A stretch of DNA of 64,000 nucleotides from Polaribacter butkevichii (GTDB taxonomy: Bacteria > Bacteroidota > Bacteroidia > Flavobacteriales > Flavobacteriaceae): the NCBI RefSeq assembly GCF_038024105.1, contig NZ_CP150661.1:3687501-3751500 (forward strand), in the 5' to 3' direction. The translations under genes and the position numbers were made by a program. Below are positions 28,546 through 35,112 of this stretch, piece after piece (position 1 is the first letter of the stretch; every line of letters starts with the position of its first letter). The notes beneath the pieces are model-generated. The model was not told where the DNA came from. It worked only from the letters and a program-made list of their open reading frames with translations, and did not search any database.

Positions 28546-30234
28546 ATGCTTTTAATTTTAGTTAATTGGATTTATATTTTCATTTCCTCCTTAAGCTTTG
28601 GGTTTTTATTAAAAAAACTATTTAAAATTGAGAATCAAAACTTTACCATTCACCATATTTTAGGACTATTTTCCATAACATTATTTAGTTGGGTGTATGC
28701 TTTTTTCTTTGCTTTAGATCTTGTTTTTTACGGCTTCATGGCTAGTGTAACAATGGCAGTAATTTGGTTGTTAAAAAAAGACGTTAAAGTACATCTCATT
28801 CAGTTTAAAAAATGTTGGCTTTTATTTAGTAACACTTATAAATTGTGTATTATTTTTATTAGTGTTGCTGCGTTGGCAATGTCGTCGGTTACGCCTGCTA
28901 TTTTTGATAATGAGAGTTATTATATACAAACCATAAAATGGTTAAATGAATACGGATTTGTTAAAGGATTGGGAAATTTACATATCTTTTTTGCACAAAC
29001 CTCTAGTTGGCATATTTTACAAGCGGCATTTTCTTTTCCGTTTTTAGAAACCTCTTTTAATGATTTAAACGGTTACTTTTTAGTTCTTTTTTCTTTTCTC
29101 TGCTTTCAACAATTACATCATTTTAAAACAAGTAAAAAAATAAACCAATTGTATATAGGTAGCGTCTTAATAAGTCTGCCTTTTCTTATTTTTTTTATCA
29201 ATGCACCTTCACCAGATTTATCGGTATTTTTAATAAGTCAGTTGTTATTTTTCCTTTTTATAAAGCATTATAAAGCCATAGACTTTTCTAGTTTTAGTAT
29301 TGTGCTATTGCTCACAATTTTTTTGTGTGTCATAAAAATCACCACTTGTGTTTTGGTGTTGTTGCCTTTAATTTTAGTTGTTAAGCATTTTAAAACATTA
29401 AAACCGAATCTAGTAAAACCCATTCTTTTCTCTGTTTTTGTACTGTTTTTATTTTTGATTAAAAATGTAATTCTTACAGGTTATTTATTATATCCGTTAG
29501 AAAATTTTGATGTTTTAAATGTAGATTGGAAAGTGCCTAAAGAATTGATTCATTTGTTTAAAGTGGGTACGTATAGTGCTGCTTTTGATTATCAAGAATT
29601 AGAAAACCTTTCTACATATCAATTGTTTATTGCTTGGGTTACCTCTTTTAAATTTAATGGAATAATCAATATTATTTTTACAACTTTATTACTCTCTTTT
29701 CCTTTTTTATGGTTTCTAAAAAGTAAAGAAAAATCCGTTTTTATCTTGTACATAATTGGAGTTTTACATTTTGTATTGGCGTGGATTTTTTCTCCTCAAT
29801 ACCGATTTTTCTTTTTTTATATGTTGTTTTTTTCCATGCAAATTTGCGTTTGGTTTTTTAAAAAAGAAAAAATAATTGTGTTATTTACCTATATAAGTTT
29901 ATTGCTAAGTTTGGTCCCTTTTTTAACCGAATTAAAATTGAGCAACTACACCACCATAAAAAAAACGAATACCAAAACCAGTATTTTAAAGCTTAAAAAT
30001 ATTGTACAACCAAATGTAAATTCGAGCATGAGTTTAGAATATAACCAACATATAGAAGGTGCTTTTGCTTATAATTCTCCCACAAAAGATAGTTTTTTCT
30101 GGACGGTAGGGATTGTGCCTTTACCTGCGGTTAATGCAAAACAAGTGGCCTTTATTAAAAAATATTATAAAATTGTTCCGGCTTTAAGAACTGCGGATGT
30201 TGAAGATGGTTTTAAGAGTATGCACGTTAAATAG
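28546..30234 (+). CDS. Polytopic membrane protein, GT-C-like (LIC_10190-type)
   Basis: A 562-residue integral membrane protein with about 11-12 hydrophobic helices and a short soluble C-terminus (~475-562). The first large loop contains FDNESYYIQTIKWLNEYG, followed by GLGNLHIFFAQTSSWHILQA. Acidic residues in such a loop recall GT-C glycosyltransferases that use lipid-linked sugars. I believe it belongs to the LIC_10190 family of unknown function. It stands alone, with a repeat-bearing 270-bp upstream gap and no sugar-nucleotide genes nearby, so the substrate is unknown. Confidence 0.65.
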   Translation: MLLILVNWIYIFISSLSFGFLLKKLFKIENQNFTIHHILGLFSITLFSWVYAFFFALDLVFYGFMASVTMAVIWLLKKDVKVHLIQFKKCWLLFSNTYKLCIIFISVAALAMSSVTPAIFDNESYYIQTIKWLNEYGFVKGLGNLHIFFAQTSSWHILQAAFSFPFLETSFNDLNGYFLVLFSFLCFQQLHHFKTSKKINQLYIGSVLISLPFLIFFINAPSPDLSVFLISQLLFFLFIKHYKAIDFSSFSIVLLLTIFLCVIKITTCVLVLLPLILVVKHFKTLKPNLVKPILFSVFVLFLFLIKNVILTGYLLYPLENFDVLNVDWKVPKELIHLFKVGTYSAAFDYQELENLSTYQLFIAWVTSFKFNGIINIIFTTLLLSFPFLWFLKSKEKSVFILYIIGVLHFVLAWIFSPQYRFFFFYMLFFSMQICVWFFKKEKIIVLFTYISLLLSLVPFLTELKLSNYTTIKKTNTKTSILKLKNIVQPNVNSSMSLEYNQHIEGAFAYNSPTKDSFFWTVGIVPLPAVNAKQVAFIKKYYKIVPALRTADVEDGFKSMHVK

Positions 30235-30425: not shown

Positions 30426-32393
30426 TCAAAATAATTCTACTATACCTATTTTTTTTAAGTAATTATAAGTACCATCATAAAAAATTTTAGGTCTTGTATG
30501 GTCTATTTCCGAACCTTCAGGTATAAAAATTATCATACCTTGTCTTCCTCTAGTTAATAAAACTCTATAAGTATTTTTAAGATAATTTTTACTTACTTCT
30601 TGTTTTATGTTTTGCCATTTTGTTCCTTTAAAATTTTGGTATTTCCATTCGTTATTATCAATATGAAAATTAGCTCCCCAAATTAAACAAGTCCTATCTA
30701 TTTCTAAACCTTGTATATCAAATTCTGTAGCTATATCTTCTAAGAAATAGGAAGACCTAATATCATCGTTTGAGTTTAAAAACCAATAAGGAGCAGATAT
30801 TTCATTTTTAACATCAAACCCTAAAGCTTTAAGTCTTCTGGCTCCAGAAGATGCTATTAAACCAGTTCTTTCTGTCCCTTTACTTTCTTCTCTTAGCCAT
30901 TTTTTAGCTACTCTTATATCTCGTGTAATGTAAATAGGGAAATCATTTTTAATGTCTGAATATAGTTTTTTTGTTGTTTCTAAATTTAATTCCAATAGTT
31001 CGTGAACAAATTCGGATACTTTTTCTGACCTAAAAGAGCGCACTGAAACCGCTAAATGTAAATCCGTTTCAGAAATTCCATTTCTATTCAACCACTTTCT
31101 TTGAGTTTCAGATTTTATATAATTAGGACTATTGACAATAGAATTTGAAAAATGAATCTCCCAGTCGTTGTAGTTTTTTTGAAAAGCACTAACCCATTCC
31201 TCAAGACCTGCTTCTCCTGTGTTTATTTCTTGTCCTCCACCAATTAAACATATAATTGTACACCAATCTTTATGACGATTCATAACATCAATCAAAAATT
31301 CTGGTTCAGACATATCAAAATCTTCAATACCTTTCTTTCTTTTCATAAATGAACTAACTTGCTTATTAGTCCATGCTCTTTGAGCTTCATCAAATACTAC
31401 AACTCTTTCGGTAGGCTTAACATTATACTTTATATATTCATCCCTAAAATGATGAATGTTTTGAATAAAAGTACTTGTTTTTCTTTTAGCTTCATCTTTA
31501 GTAACTCGTTGACCACTTTCTGCAGCTGTTAAAACAAAGTCTCTAGCTAAAGCTTCTCTTAAAACATCTACCAATGGACCATTTCCTGAAAGAAAAACTG
31601 CATGTTCATCCTCATTTGCGAGCATTCTTTCATTTGCAATACTTAAGCCTGCCAATGTTTTTCCTGCTCCTGGTACTCCTGTAATAAAACAAATTGATTT
31701 TTTATTATTTAGCTTTGAATTATCTATGACTTCATTTATATAATTAGAAGTTTTGTTTAGATTTATTTTTTCTGAATCATGGCGAGATATCTCCTCAACC
31801 TTGTGTCCTTTGTATAGTGCTTGAGCTGCCTCAACTATTGTTGGTGTAGGCTTATATATTGAATTCTCCCAAATTTCAATATTTATTTCATCCCTCGGAT
31901 ACTGAGTAAATTTCTCAATTATTTCTCTGATTCCAGATTTGTTACATTTTGCAACTTGATAATGTTCTATTACTTTTTCTGTATTAGTTGAACACCATTC
32001 AGCATTTGTTGCAATTAGTACTGGAATTAATTTAACAAAATGACTGCCTTCATGGAAATTTTTTAAATCTAAACAATAGTCTATTACTTGTAATTCTGCA
32101 TGTTTACCATATGTATTATCACCGACCTTAAATTCGACTACAAAAACACAATCATCAACAATTATTATGTTGTCAACACGTTTTCCCATTCTAGGAATTT
32201 GAAATTCAAAATAAATTGAACCTCTAATTCCAGTTAACTCACTCTTAAGAATTTCAATCTGTTTAACCCAAGCATTTTTTTGTAAATCCTCTAACGAACG
32301 ATTACTATGGTTTAAGCTTAATTGGCCTAAAACTGAATTTGAATCTTCAGTTAAAAACTCTGAAATTGTATTACTGTAGTATGCTCTTTTCAT
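30426..32393 (-). CDS. PD-(D/E)xK nuclease fused to DUF2075 helicase-like ATPase
   Basis: A 655-residue protein. Residues ~55-135 have a restriction-nuclease-like core: Glu63, Asp74 (KRVDNIII) and Glu87-x-Lys89 (VVEFK). Residues ~230-655 are a DUF2075/Schlafen-group-3-like P-loop domain: Walker A GVPGAGKT (239-246), Walker B VVVFDEAQ (331-338), an Arg/Gln-rich middle (SVRSFRSE) and the motif VI-like VLLTRGRQGM near the C-terminus. Such fusions are expected to process or cleave DNA or RNA with ATP. Its start codon directly follows the stop of a controller-type XRE gene (TAAATG), so the two form one operon. A defence role is inference; no methyltransferase is present. Confidence 0.82.
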   Translation of the reverse strand: MKRAYYSNTISEFLTEDSNSVLGQLSLNHSNRSLEDLQKNAWVKQIEILKSELTGIRGSIYFEFQIPRMGKRVDNIIIVDDCVFVVEFKVGDNTYGKHAELQVIDYCLDLKNFHEGSHFVKLIPVLIATNAEWCSTNTEKVIEHYQVAKCNKSGIREIIEKFTQYPRDEINIEIWENSIYKPTPTIVEAAQALYKGHKVEEISRHDSEKINLNKTSNYINEVIDNSKLNNKKSICFITGVPGAGKTLAGLSIANERMLANEDEHAVFLSGNGPLVDVLREALARDFVLTAAESGQRVTKDEAKRKTSTFIQNIHHFRDEYIKYNVKPTERVVVFDEAQRAWTNKQVSSFMKRKKGIEDFDMSEPEFLIDVMNRHKDWCTIICLIGGGQEINTGEAGLEEWVSAFQKNYNDWEIHFSNSIVNSPNYIKSETQRKWLNRNGISETDLHLAVSVRSFRSEKVSEFVHELLELNLETTKKLYSDIKNDFPIYITRDIRVAKKWLREESKGTERTGLIASSGARRLKALGFDVKNEISAPYWFLNSNDDIRSSYFLEDIATEFDIQGLEIDRTCLIWGANFHIDNNEWKYQNFKGTKWQNIKQEVSKNYLKNTYRVLLTRGRQGMIIFIPEGSEIDHTRPKIFYDGTYNYLKKIGIVELF

Positions 32394-32663
32394 TTAACTA
32401 TCAGTTTTAAGTTGATAATCATTAAAACTTAGTTTTGAATTTTGATTTTTAAAGTTTAATAAATCTGAAATCTCCATTTCAAAAACTTTTGAAAATACAG
32501 CAATATTGGTTAGAGATATATTTCTTTCGCCTCTTTCAATCATACCAATATAAGTTCTATGAAATCCTGTTTTGAAAGAAAGTTTTTCTTGACTTAGTTT
32601 GTTTTCGAGTCTTAACTCTCTAATTCTTATTCCAAATTCTTTTAAAAGAAATTTATTTACCAT
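32394..32663 (-). CDS. XRE-family controller-type regulator
   Basis: An 89-residue single-domain helix-turn-helix protein. Residues ~8-68 form the XRE fold (FGIRIRELRLENKLSQEKL, FHRTYIGMIERGERNISL), strongly resembling C-proteins that time expression of restriction enzymes (their recognition helix region is often HRTYISxIERGxRNxSL). I start at the ATG at 32663; an in-frame TTG one codon earlier is unlikely. It is the first gene of a two-gene operon with the nuclease-helicase, and two palindromic operators lie directly upstream, fitting autoregulation. Confidence 0.88.
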   Translation of the reverse strand: MVNKFLLKEFGIRIRELRLENKLSQEKLSFKTGFHRTYIGMIERGERNISLTNIAVFSKVFEMEISDLLNFKNQNSKLSFNDYQLKTDS

Positions 32664-32674
32664 CAATCTAAACT

Positions 32675-32712
32675 ATACATATTGTATGCGTTAATCAACA
32701 TACAATATGTAT
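32675..32712. promoter_or_regulatory. Paired operators ATACA-N3-TGTAT in a perfect inverted arrangement
   Basis: Two palindromes, ATACATATTGTAT (32675-32687) and ATACAATATGTAT (32700-32712), centres 25 bp apart. The 14-bp segments 32675-32688 and 32699-32712 are exact reverse complements. They lie between the divergent XRE and orphan genes and overlap both promoter regions, as expected for a controller protein acting on itself. A further TGTAT half-site is at 32718-32722. Confidence 0.82.
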
Positions 32713-32719
32713 CATTTTG

Positions 32720-32727
32720 TATCTTTG
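32720..32727 (+). promoter_or_regulatory. -7 element of the orphan gene facing the XRE operon
   Basis: TATCTTTG, 15 nt before the ATG at 32743. The -33 position falls inside the right-hand operator. Confidence 0.55.
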
Positions 32728-32742
32728 AAAAAATATTTAAAC

Positions 32743-33174
32743 ATGAAAAAATATGCTAGAGTAACTAATTTTAACGGGAAAGGAATGAATGAAGGTTATT
32801 GTTTCAATGATGGAGAATATTATTGCGAAACCGAAGAACAAGCTAAATTCTATATTGAGGGTTTAGGATTAGATTGGAAAGAAGAGCTATTAACCTTTAA
32901 TACAAAGGACGAGTGGTTTTATTGGACAGATTGGTATGACCAGGAAGCTGATATTTATTATGATATTAATGGTTGTGAAATAAATAATAAAAAAGATACA
33001 TTATTTGCTATCTACAAGAAAGGTGTTCATTTAGGTAATGAATTAGGTGAAAACAAAAACGATGCAATTAGAAAATATCTAATTGCATCGTTGTATGAAA
33101 TTTTTTTAAAAGATTTAGAATTTGTTTCTTTATACTCCGCTAAAAAAGCAGTTAAAAGAACTCATTTTTTATAG
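32743..33174 (+). CDS. Small orphan protein divergent from the XRE-nuclease operon
   Basis: A 143-residue soluble protein, no signal peptide or membrane segment. It is rich in Tyr, Trp and acidic residues (GYCFNDGEYYCETEEQAKFY, WFYWTDWYDQEAD), with a basic C-terminus (SAKKAVKRTHFL). I recognise no family. The start at 32743 follows a good -7 element; the longer reading to 32707 begins in the operator. It shares its control region with the XRE operon, so it could be co-regulated (accessory or inhibitor) or merely adjacent. A perfect hairpin lies within its coding sequence. Its stop is 13 bp from that of the converging sulP gene. Confidence 0.6.
   Translation: MKKYARVTNFNGKGMNEGYCFNDGEYYCETEEQAKFYIEGLGLDWKEELLTFNTKDEWFYWTDWYDQEADIYYDINGCEINNKKDTLFAIYKKGVHLGNELGENKNDAIRKYLIASLYEIFLKDLEFVSLYSAKKAVKRTHFL
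33060..33090 (+). other. Perfect hairpin inside the orphan gene, followed by a T run
   Basis: CGATGCAATTAG and CTAATTGCATCG form a 12-bp stem with a 7-nt loop. A T7 run follows about 11 nt later. It is within codons of the gene at 32743-33174. Confidence 0.6.
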
Positions 33175-33187
33175 AAATTATTTCCCA

Positions 33188-35080
33188 TTAAAACTTATAC
33201 TCACCTAAAGGTTTAGGAAAATCTTCTGGGTTTGCAGCTAAGTGATAACGAGGATCATCGATATCTTCTATAATGATTTCCTGAAATATTGGGCTCGATT
33301 TAAACAATAACAATTTACAATCTTCACTCAAGTGTTTTAAGGTGATTTTTTTGTTGGCTGCTTGGTACTTTTCAACCAAATTAAAAATAGCTTCTATGGC
33401 AGAATGATCTGTAACACGTGCTTCTACAAAATCTATTTCTACAACATCTGGGTCGTTTTTAATATCGAACTTTTCATTAAATTCGGTAATACTTCCAAAG
33501 AATAAAGGACCCCAAATTTCGTAAATTTTTGTTCCGTCTGCTTTAAAACGTTTTCTAGCTCTAATTTTCTTAGCACTTGTCCAAGCAAAAGATAAAGCAG
33601 AAATAATAACCCCTACAAATACGGCAATGGCCAAATCAAAGAAAACTGTTACTGCAGAAACAATGATTAATACAAAAGCATCTGCCATTGGTATTTTCTT
33701 TAAAATTCTAAAACTAGACCAAGCAAAAGTTTCAATCACCATCATAAACATTACACCAACAAGCGCTGCAATGGGCACTTGCTCTATATATTTATCTGCA
33801 AATAAAATAAAAGTTAATAGTGTTAATGCCATCATTACGCCCGATAAACGTCCACGTCCGCCAGCATTGATATTAATTACGGTTTGTCCAATCATACCAC
33901 AACCACCAGTTCCACCAAAGGCACCACTTACAATGTTTCCTGCACCTTGCGCAATACACTCTTTGTTTCCGTTACCTCTAGATTCTGTTAATTCATCCAC
34001 TAAATTCATGGTCATTAACGTTTCTATTAAACCAACCGATGCTGCTAAAAAGGCATAAGGAGCAATAAACTTTAAGGTATCTAAATTAAAAGGAAGGTTG
34101 CTCCACAATTCTAAAACATTTAAATTCTTAGAAAGTTCTGCAATTCCATTTAAACCAGCGCCACCACCATCTCTAATAAAATCGCCAACATTAATAGAAC
34201 CCAATCCGCTAAAAATAGAAATTAGAGTAACGATTAAAATGGCTGTTAATGCAGCAGGTATTTTTGTAGTTAATTTAGGCAATCCCCAAACAATTAGCAT
34301 GGTTAATAATACCAAACCAATCATTATATATAAGGTTTTTCCTTGCATAGTTGTTTTTACAACACCGCTATCTTTTACTGAATAAAAACCCTCATCGGAA
34401 GCATTAAAAACAACTTTTTTAGTTTTTGCATCAAATACTTGTCCGTCAGACACAAAAAATACTTCTTGGTTGGTGGCTTTGTTTTTTATTGATTTTCCAT
34501 CAATAGTAAATAAAACGGTACCAGACATTATATCTTTTACTTGGTTGTTAGATACATTATAGACCAATTCTTTCGATTCGGTTTTACGCATATTTTGTCC
34601 GAAGAAATCTTTTTTGTTTTCTTTAAACATGCCTAATTGTGCCATAAAAATAACAATGGCCAAACCATTTACAAAGCCCATCATTACAGGATGTGGAATT
34701 AAACGTACAAATTTTCCTAACTTAAAAACACCTGCAAATATTTGTATAATTCCCATTAATACTACGGCAGCTAAAAGATAAAAGTAGCCCATATTTTCTA
34801 CAGGATTGTCAAATAACAAGCCTTTTGCGTGTCCTTCTTGTATCATATGCACAAAAATAACAGCAACAGCACCTGCAGCACCAGAGATTAATCCGGGTCT
34901 TCCACCAAAACTAGCAGAAATAATTCCTACCACAAAAGCACCAAATAAAGCTACAATAGGACTTATTTGTGCCACAAAAGCAAAAGCGACAACTTCTGGT
35001 ATCATTGCTAGGGAAACGGTTATTCCTGCAAGGACATCATCTTTTGCATTTGGTAAAATTTTTCTAATAAACTCAGTCAT
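33188..35080 (-). CDS. SulP-family anion transporter with STAS domain and a soluble insertion
   Basis: A 630-residue inner-membrane transporter of the SLC26/SulP group (sulfate or bicarbonate). The family start LPNAKDDVLAGITVSLAMIP is intact, with FGGRPGLISGAAGA and GAFGGTGGCGMIGQT in the core. The C-terminal ~130 residues are a STAS domain (VVEIDFVEARVTDHSAIEAI). Unusually, ~105 soluble residues (from about 155 to 260, FVSDGQVFDAKTKKVVFNAS and similar strands) interrupt the membrane domain after FMAQLGMF. The start at 35080 (MTEFIRK) is preferred over 35107 because of the promoter. Confidence 0.88.
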   Translation of the reverse strand: MTEFIRKILPNAKDDVLAGITVSLAMIPEVVAFAFVAQISPIVALFGAFVVGIISASFGGRPGLISGAAGAVAVIFVHMIQEGHAKGLLFDNPVENMGYFYLLAAVVLMGIIQIFAGVFKLGKFVRLIPHPVMMGFVNGLAIVIFMAQLGMFKENKKDFFGQNMRKTESKELVYNVSNNQVKDIMSGTVLFTIDGKSIKNKATNQEVFFVSDGQVFDAKTKKVVFNASDEGFYSVKDSGVVKTTMQGKTLYIMIGLVLLTMLIVWGLPKLTTKIPAALTAILIVTLISIFSGLGSINVGDFIRDGGGAGLNGIAELSKNLNVLELWSNLPFNLDTLKFIAPYAFLAASVGLIETLMTMNLVDELTESRGNGNKECIAQGAGNIVSGAFGGTGGCGMIGQTVININAGGRGRLSGVMMALTLLTFILFADKYIEQVPIAALVGVMFMMVIETFAWSSFRILKKIPMADAFVLIIVSAVTVFFDLAIAVFVGVIISALSFAWTSAKKIRARKRFKADGTKIYEIWGPLFFGSITEFNEKFDIKNDPDVVEIDFVEARVTDHSAIEAIFNLVEKYQAANKKITLKHLSEDCKLLLFKSSPIFQEIIIEDIDDPRYHLAANPEDFPKPLGEYKF

Positions 35081-35104
35081 AATTGGTTGATTTTTTCGAG
35101 TCGG

Positions 35105-35112
35105 CAAAGATA
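35105..35112 (-). promoter_or_regulatory. -7 element of the sulP promoter
   Basis: Minus-strand TATCTTTG, 25 nt before the ATG at 35080. Confidence 0.55.

What the first reader, a model, noticed from the sequence alone, without database searches (positions are those of the whole stretch)
30426..33174. Candidate defence module: controller XRE + PD-(D/E)xK-DUF2075 nuclease-helicase with twin operators
The XRE protein resembles restriction-modification C-proteins and its stop abuts the start of a 655-residue protein joining a nuclease-like site (Asp74, Glu87-x-Lys89) to a DUF2075/Schlafen-group-3-like ATPase. No methyltransferase is present, so self-protection would need a different basis. Two ATACA-N3-TGTAT palindromes and a divergent orphan gene share the control region. 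The combination with its timing circuitry resembles a restriction system but matches no named system I can place.
Basis: partly seen in the sequence, partly recalled or inferred. Interest (0 to 1): 0.75.

Follow-up and report, generated by a model that had tools for sequence, protein, structure and literature searches.

The report
Restriction-type switch driving a nuclease-helicase
A marine bacterium carries a DNA-cutting helicase placed under the kind of genetic timer that normally controls restriction enzymes, and in related bacteria the same timer sits in front of quite different DNA-cutting enzymes, often without the usual protective enzyme beside it.

Summary
The 655-aa protein is PADLOC's candidate defence family PDC-S41 (948 bits). 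D74/E87/K89 and Q102/Y106 are invariant in 41 of 41 aligned proteins; the AlphaFold model (pLDDT 82.8) shows the PD-(D/E)xK core order and a UvrD/Schlafen-like helicase. The XRE is a restriction-modification controller (C) protein: best PDB matches C.BclI, C.AhdI, C.Esp1396I. New here: the same C protein, twin operators and promoter stand before different effectors. In a regulator-first census (14 of 299 family genomes) these were PDC-S41 in 4, a 156-aa nuclease-like protein in 6, McrBC-like pairs in 2, an EcoO109I-type enzyme in 1, an unidentified gene in 1. Effectors alternate at the same chromosomal sites; the window copy lies in a genus-level defence hotspot. The module works like a C-controlled restriction unit with no linked methyltransferase. 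Anti-phage activity, target and self-protection are untested. Against: 62 of 81 PDC-S41 loci show no XRE, their neighbours show no evident defence enrichment, and one 156-aa locus does have an adjacent methyltransferase. The divergent orphan is a variable companion.

The parts
30426..32393 (-). PDC-S41 nuclease-helicase gene, 655 aa
   Evidence: PF09848 1.9e-81; PDC-S41 948 bits over aa 1-654
31794..32393 (-). N-terminal RecB/NERD-like PD-(D/E)xK nuclease part (aa 1-200): D74, E87-x-K89, Q102-x3-Y106
   Evidence: invariant in 41 of 41, kept in 8 of 8 distant relatives (five of the eight are near-copies), core order H-E-E-E-H-E in the model, weak NERD hits in 6 of 26 members, not the window's
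30519..31700 (-). SF1-type helicase part (aa 232-625), Walker A GVPGAGKT, Walker B DEAQ
32394..32663 (-). XRE controller (C) protein, 89 aa; its stop abuts the start of PDC-S41
   Evidence: Control_protein 70 bits; C.BclI 9.9e-18, C.AhdI 1.8e-17
32700..32712 (-). distal operator OL, next to the -33 element of the C promoter
32675..32687 (-). proximal operator OR, between the -33 and -7 elements (expected repression site)
32696..32698 (-). -33 element TTG of the C-PDC-S41 promoter
   Evidence: Bacteroidota promoter consensus recalled
32668..32675 (-). -7 element TAGTTTAG, 20 bp from the TTG and 4 nt before the start codon (mRNA predicted nearly leaderless)
32720..32727 (+). -7 element TATCTTTG of a divergent promoter 7 bp from OL; such an element lies at 7-8 bp in 10 of 21 loci, the window included
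32743..33174 (+). divergent small gene (143 aa), variable companion; halves 1-77 and about 80-143 occur separately elsewhere
   Evidence: no Pfam, PADLOC or NCBIfam hit, best PHROG E 1.1
33188..35107 (-). SulP-type transporter, border of the variable site (context, not part)
   Evidence: matched in 52 of 58 genus genomes
28546..30234 (+). 562-aa membrane protein, other border of the variable site (context, not part)
   Evidence: same border in L180-L183

Best explanation
A C-protein-controlled restriction-type module with no linked methyltransferase. The XRE protein is an R-M controller: its dimers bind two sites (OL beside the -33 element, OR between -33 and -7), so that low levels would activate and high levels would repress the promoter of a nearly leaderless C/PDC-S41 mRNA; after the module enters a new cell the nuclease would appear late and stay low. 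The product joins a RecB/NERD-like PD-(D/E)xK nuclease to a UvrD/Schlafen-like SF1 helicase and most likely attacks invading DNA by its state (ends, single strands, replication intermediates, or modification) rather than by an unmethylated site, so that no partner methyltransferase is needed. The control cassette is reused: different effectors (PDC-S41, a 156-aa nuclease-like protein, McrBC-like pairs, an EcoO109I-type enzyme) stand behind it. Supported by computation: C-protein kinship, operator and promoter conservation, the pattern of effector exchange, catalytic motif, helicase fold. Inferred: activation/repression, delay, nuclease activity, target, phage defence.
Against: 62 of 81 PDC-S41 loci showed no XRE directly upstream (four of these, L033, L037, L049, L076, begin too close to a contig end to tell), so the effector does not need the regulator. 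Neighbours of the XRE-less copies show no evident defence enrichment (106 near genes match 47 PADLOC families; 78 genes over 3 kb away match 41; numbers of matching proteins not available). One 156-aa locus (L105) has a D12 methyltransferase directly beside the cassette, so not every member of the set lacks a partner. No phage or nuclease test. The separate fold of the N-terminal domain was submitted but had not finished, so the nuclease fold rests on one full-length model and motifs. Activation by OL is inferred from other C proteins. Most forks of the XRE tree are weakly supported.
Confidence: 0.6

Rival explanations
1. Phage-triggered abortive-infection effector with a simple autorepressor: XRE keeps the operon off and infection relieves it; the nuclease-helicase destroys host and phage DNA.
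For: PF09848 is listed among Abi families in PMC10121019 (passage); [quoted passage not shown] The XRE also has weaker hits to phage repressors and to an antitoxin model.
Against: Best XRE matches are C proteins of R-M systems, not antitoxins; two sites flanking the -33 element fit OL/OR; the same cassette drives type II and McrBC-like genes.
Confidence: 0.2
2. Modification-dependent (type IV-like) restriction: PDC-S41 attacks modified phage DNA, which explains the missing methyltransferase.
For: McrBC-like pairs occupy the same slot, and PLD-ResIII-DUF3427 type IV enzymes occupy the same chromosomal site in relatives.
Against: No modified-base reading domain was recognised in PDC-S41; the nuclease and helicase parts account for most of the protein.
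Confidence: 0.2
3. Housekeeping DNA-repair nuclease-helicase (Dna2/AddAB-like, recalled) that happens to have an XRE gene in front.
For: UvrD-like fold; many copies stand alone among ordinary genes.
Against: Patchy: 6 of 58 genus genomes (5 nearly full length); found in records labelled Bacteroidota, Campylobacterota, Acinetobacter and Neisseria, the last three at 57-67% identity; stands in the place of restriction enzymes behind one regulator; lies in a defence hotspot.
Confidence: 0.07

Closest known systems
PADLOC candidate PDC-S41
   Same: Full-length match, 948 bits, profile 1-653 of 657
   Different: As I recall its name, a single-gene candidate; here it is the second gene of a C-controlled operon. 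No held paper has the term PDC-S41
C proteins of type II R-M (C.BclI, C.AhdI, C.Esp1396I; C.Csp231I/C.EcoO109I class)
   Same: Small HTH, gene directly upstream of the nuclease, two operator sites overlapping the promoter, an EcoO109I-type enzyme among the partners
   Different: Operator ATAC-N5-GTAT with a 12-bp spacer; about 4 bp is typical, 18 bp in Csp231I and 25 bp in EcoO109I (PMC4321490 passages). No linked methyltransferase. A C-family gene outside type II is already known for a type I locus of Mycoplasma gallisepticum (PMC12707154 passage)
Hachiman (HamA-HamB)
   Same: Nuclease coupled to a helicase, no methyltransferase (PMC12278908 passages)
   Different: Two proteins, helicase likened to Hel308/SF2; here one chain with an SF1/Schlafen-type helicase, and no Hachiman family in the list
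Schlafen group 3 / SLFN11
   Same: Helicase domain family PF09848 and fold
   Different: Nuclease part is RecB/NERD-like instead of the Schlafen core (Schlafen core recalled)
RptR
   Same: A small regulator with a conserved site controlling restriction loci in many genomes (PMC12255303 abstract and passages)
   Different: RptR is a repressor of type I R-M islands with a TAGCTA site; here a C-type protein with exchanged effectors

Membership tests
R-M controller (C) proteins | small XRE-type HTH most similar to characterised C proteins | tested here: met
R-M controller (C) proteins | gene immediately upstream of, and co-directional with, the nuclease gene | tested here: met
   TAA-ATG abut
R-M controller (C) proteins | two dimer sites overlapping its own promoter | tested here: met
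   (sequence only, no binding test)
R-M controller (C) proteins | classical GACT/AGTC C-box | tested here: not met
   window sites are ATAC-N5-GTAT. Not universal: C.Csp231I also differs (PMC4321490 passages); the sister lineage has the classical form exactly in 4 of 8 loci
R-M controller (C) proteins | activates at low and represses at high dose | not testable with these tools
   needs reporter assay
Type II R-M system | cognate methyltransferase linked to the nuclease | tested here: not met
   no PF02086, PF00145 or PF01555 match over cut-off in the genome; the 8 PF02384 matches lie outside the window; other methyltransferase families were not tested
PADLOC PDC-S41 | full-length match to the family model | tested here: met
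PADLOC PDC-S41 | anti-phage activity | not testable with these tools
   no experiment; the term PDC-S41 is in no held paper
PD-(D/E)xK nuclease superfamily | catalytic D...E-x-K on an alpha-beta-beta-beta-alpha-beta core | tested here: met
   (motif and order of elements in a model); no Pfam nuclease model reached cut-off (NERD 6 of 26, best 0.0097)
PD-(D/E)xK nuclease superfamily | structural match of the domain to a solved nuclease | tested here: inconclusive
   full-length comparison was filled by helicases; N-terminal fold not finished
Hachiman | match to Hachiman models | tested here: not met
   one search lists no Hachiman family at E up to 10 (HMMER filters drop most matches above 0.1)
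Gabija | GajA plus GajB | tested here: not met
   one search lists no GajA/GajB (same limit)

The most novel reading that the evidence does not exclude
One C-protein control cassette (C gene, OL-12 bp-OR, TTG-N20-TAGTTTxG promoter) has been freed from the R-M setting and serves as an interchangeable expression platform for DNA-attacking effectors that mostly have no linked methyltransferase (PDC-S41 nuclease-helicase, 156-aa nuclease, McrBC), which replace one another behind it at fixed chromosomal sites. C-type timing would then be a general device for installing toxic DNA-targeting immunity in new hosts, not only a way to let methylation come first.
Probability: 0.5. Interest if true: 0.75.

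Novelty: new variant of a known kind. Interest (0 to 1): 0.62.

Why it matters
C proteins are explained as devices that delay the nuclease until the methyltransferase has protected the host (PMC12707154 and PMC3850674 passages). Here the same device controls nucleases that mostly have no linked methyltransferase, so either delay and dosage control matter for another reason, or self-recognition works differently. The regulator also serves as a search tool: its operator leads to effectors that defence-island searches could miss, since many PDC-S41 genes lie among ordinary genes. The C-operator-effector unit makes PDC-S41 testable in its natural expression context.

Tried and rejected
Operator in IMG/VR: 0 exact matches. 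PDC-S41 relatives in viral contigs: 9, at 29-54% identity; XRE relatives there: 26, at most 58%. Plasmids: 4 records; phages: 1. In what was searched these modules are mainly chromosomal.

Divergent orphan as antitoxin or immunity gene: not supported. Its halves occur separately; the C-terminal half also sits at the SulP site with other genes (L154, L159, L167); other small genes take its place in L009 and L115, L004 shows only a 60-aa ORF and L005 none.

'No methyltransferase in the genome': rejected as too strong; PF02384 gives 8 matches. 'The 156-aa effector never has a methyltransferase': rejected; L105 has a D12 enzyme beside it, and L104/L109 lie in a locus with a shortened C5 gene.

Defence-island enrichment of XRE-less PDC-S41: not seen (47 and 41 families matched, 25 listed each, protein counts not available).

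Common origin of the nuclease part and the 156-aa effector: no profile similarity (only 3 sequences on one side, a weak test).

PDB sequence search with PDC-S41: no meaningful hit. Structural comparison listed helicases, mostly for aa 181-655, and no nuclease for the N-terminus; inconclusive, because one domain filled the list.

Papers: PDC-S41 0 papers; DUF2075+phage+defen 0; searches on Schlafen and PADLOC terms, on C proteins with type IV or methyltransferase-free partners and on SLFN-g3 or NERD terms gave no report of this arrangement in the titles and abstract starts listed, nor in the passages seen of PMC12707154, PMC11090510, PMC4321490, PMC6237814, PMC3850674, PMC3874152, PMC12255303 (also outline and abstract), PMC10121019 and PMC12278908. 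In PMC13092281 the four terms asked for had 0 occurrences. No paper was read whole. Sorokin et al. 2009 on C-protein sites is not held and may list similar operators. The preprint that I recall as the source of the PDC names is not held.
Full report
What is there. The window holds a compact two-gene operon on the minus strand: an 89-aa XRE gene (32394-32663) whose stop directly abuts the ATG of a 655-aa gene (30426-32393). Upstream lie two 13-bp palindromic sites, 32675-32687 and 32700-32712, inverted copies 12 bp apart. The pair occurs once in the 4.08-Mb genome. A divergent small gene begins most probably at 32743, since the earlier ATG at 32707 lies in the operator and just ahead of a TATCTTTG -7 element.

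The regulator is an R-M controller protein. Its profile (A1, 10 sequences) matches C.BclI (9.9e-18), C.AhdI (1.8e-17) and the C.Esp1396I group (5.8e-11) ahead of the other PDB chains listed, and PADLOC's Control_protein model (70 bits). In more distant genomes (9 of 395 phylum genomes; 4 of 395 order genomes, E at most 1e-22, the window's own counted in both) ten further loci were fetched and read: in seven (L140, L142-L147; XRE identity 44-57%) the XRE precedes a gene that I read as a type II enzyme with a convergent methyltransferase; L141 lies between methyltransferases; L148 has McrBC-like genes; L149 has no effector and no recognisable operator. These readings come from the sequences printed, not from family scans. 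In L111 the partner is a type II EcoO109I enzyme by Pfam (1.6e-33).

Operator and promoter. In 21 of 21 loci with the window-type C protein both sites are present at the same spacing, the distal site is followed by a TTG, and the proximal site lies between it and a TAGTTTxG-like element; the script scored the 20-bp spacing in 20 of 21 (in L115 it picked another -7, but TAGTTTAG is at the common position), with the start codon about 4 nt on (2-6 by the script's count, L115 aside). L004's distal site has one change. This fits the Bacteroidota promoter (recalled) and a nearly leaderless mRNA. Classical C proteins activate from the distal site and repress from the proximal one (PMC12707154 and PMC4321490 passages); that this one does so is inference. 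Site spacing is about 4 bp in classical systems, 18 in Csp231I and 25 in EcoO109I; here it is 12. A second, separate C lineage upstream of PDC-S41 (L056, L057, L060, L061, L064, L066, L074, L080; a starred clade) carries C-box-like sites, exactly GACTATAGTC in L061, L064, L066 and L074 and variants in the other four; two of its members scanned hit PADLOC Control_protein at 71-80 bits, as did L080. This suggests that PDC-S41 came under C-type control more than once.

Exchange of effectors. Searching from the regulator, 14 of 299 family genomes have it. Their downstream genes are PDC-S41 in 4, a 156-aa protein with an E-x-K motif in 6 (no Pfam hit above cut-off), McrB/McrC-like pairs in 2 (AAA_5 with the MN(T/S)ADRS motif, recalled as McrB's; the McrC part by reading only, with no family hit), an EcoO109I-type enzyme in 1, and an unidentified 199-aa gene beside methyltransferases in 1. 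Searching from the operator gives 14 of 397, one per genome; one genome not in the first set (G377) has the 156-aa type. On a tree of 21 regulators (11 PDC-S41, 7 of the 156-aa type, 3 McrBC-like; PDC-S41 is over-represented because searched for it) the effector label changes 8 times, against 8.6 in shuffles, 83 of 200 shuffles being as low; support is low for most forks. The effectors alternate at the same chromosomal place: beside or near polA PDC-S41 (L002, L003, L005, L009, L010, and L007 without XRE), the 156-aa type (L102, L103) and McrBC-like (L108); between ygiQ and polA L009/L010 against L102/L103; beside one gene that I read as dnaE-like PDC-S41 (L112) against McrBC-like (L107).

Methyltransferases. 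In the window's genome no match over cut-off was found for PF02086, PF00145 or PF01555, but PF02384 has 8 matches elsewhere. Three genomes with the 156-aa effector (G049, G209, G377) likewise lack the first three families but have PF02384 matches. On the other side, L105 (G054), a 156-aa locus, has a D12 methyltransferase directly beside the cassette. So most of these modules have no linked partner of the families tested, but the genomes are not free of DNA methyltransferases.

Results against the reading. 62 of 81 PDC-S41 loci showed no upstream XRE, four of them too close to a contig end to tell. Nearest neighbours of these copies (106 proteins) and genes over 3 kb away (78 proteins) matched 47 and 41 PADLOC families, with one or two proteins per family listed: no evident enrichment. 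No functional datum exists. The divergent orphan is not a constant part: its first half recurs in PDC-S41 and 156-aa loci (L003, L006, L055, L102, L103), its second half in L002, L010 and with other cargo.

Verdict. The find works like a C-controlled restriction unit and contains a C-type regulator by the sequence features tested except the classical C-box, but it is not a type II R-M system because no methyltransferase is linked. The effector is a known candidate family. The part for which the searches named in Tried and rejected gave no report is the reuse of one C cassette for several nucleases, mostly without a linked methyltransferase, including a Schlafen-type nuclease-helicase.

Noticed in passing
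window 33188-35107 and L180-L197: The 3' side of the SulP gene is a variable site in the genus, holding different restriction and defence genes in close relatives.
   Followed up: partly
L002-L007, L009, L010, L055, L108; also L181, L182, L188, L193: A 128-133-aa NUDIX (MutT-like, by reading) gene lies convergent to PDC-S41 and also beside McrBC-like and PLD-ResIII-DUF3427 type IV genes; none was seen beside the window copy.
   Followed up: partly
L104, L109: The C/156-aa cassette sits in what reads as a Sau3AI-like R-M locus whose C5 methyltransferase frame is cut short; inverted repeats of about 110 bp flank the cassette (81% and 68% identity).
   Followed up: partly
L105, L146: Direct repeats of 88 bp (92%) and 156 bp (92%) flank the C-effector cassette, perhaps traces of how it moves.
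   Followed up: partly
L105, L106, L107, L109: A 79-aa convergent small gene follows the effector in both 156-aa and McrBC-like loci.
   Followed up: no
L060, L061, L064, L066, L074: A small gene related (32-51%) to one found in L005, L010 and L108 lies upstream of the second C lineage.
   Followed up: no
L149: A window-type XRE with neither effector nor recognisable operator, possibly a relic.
   Followed up: no
L101 (G306): A fragmented PDC-S41 remnant in a same-genus genome.
   Followed up: no
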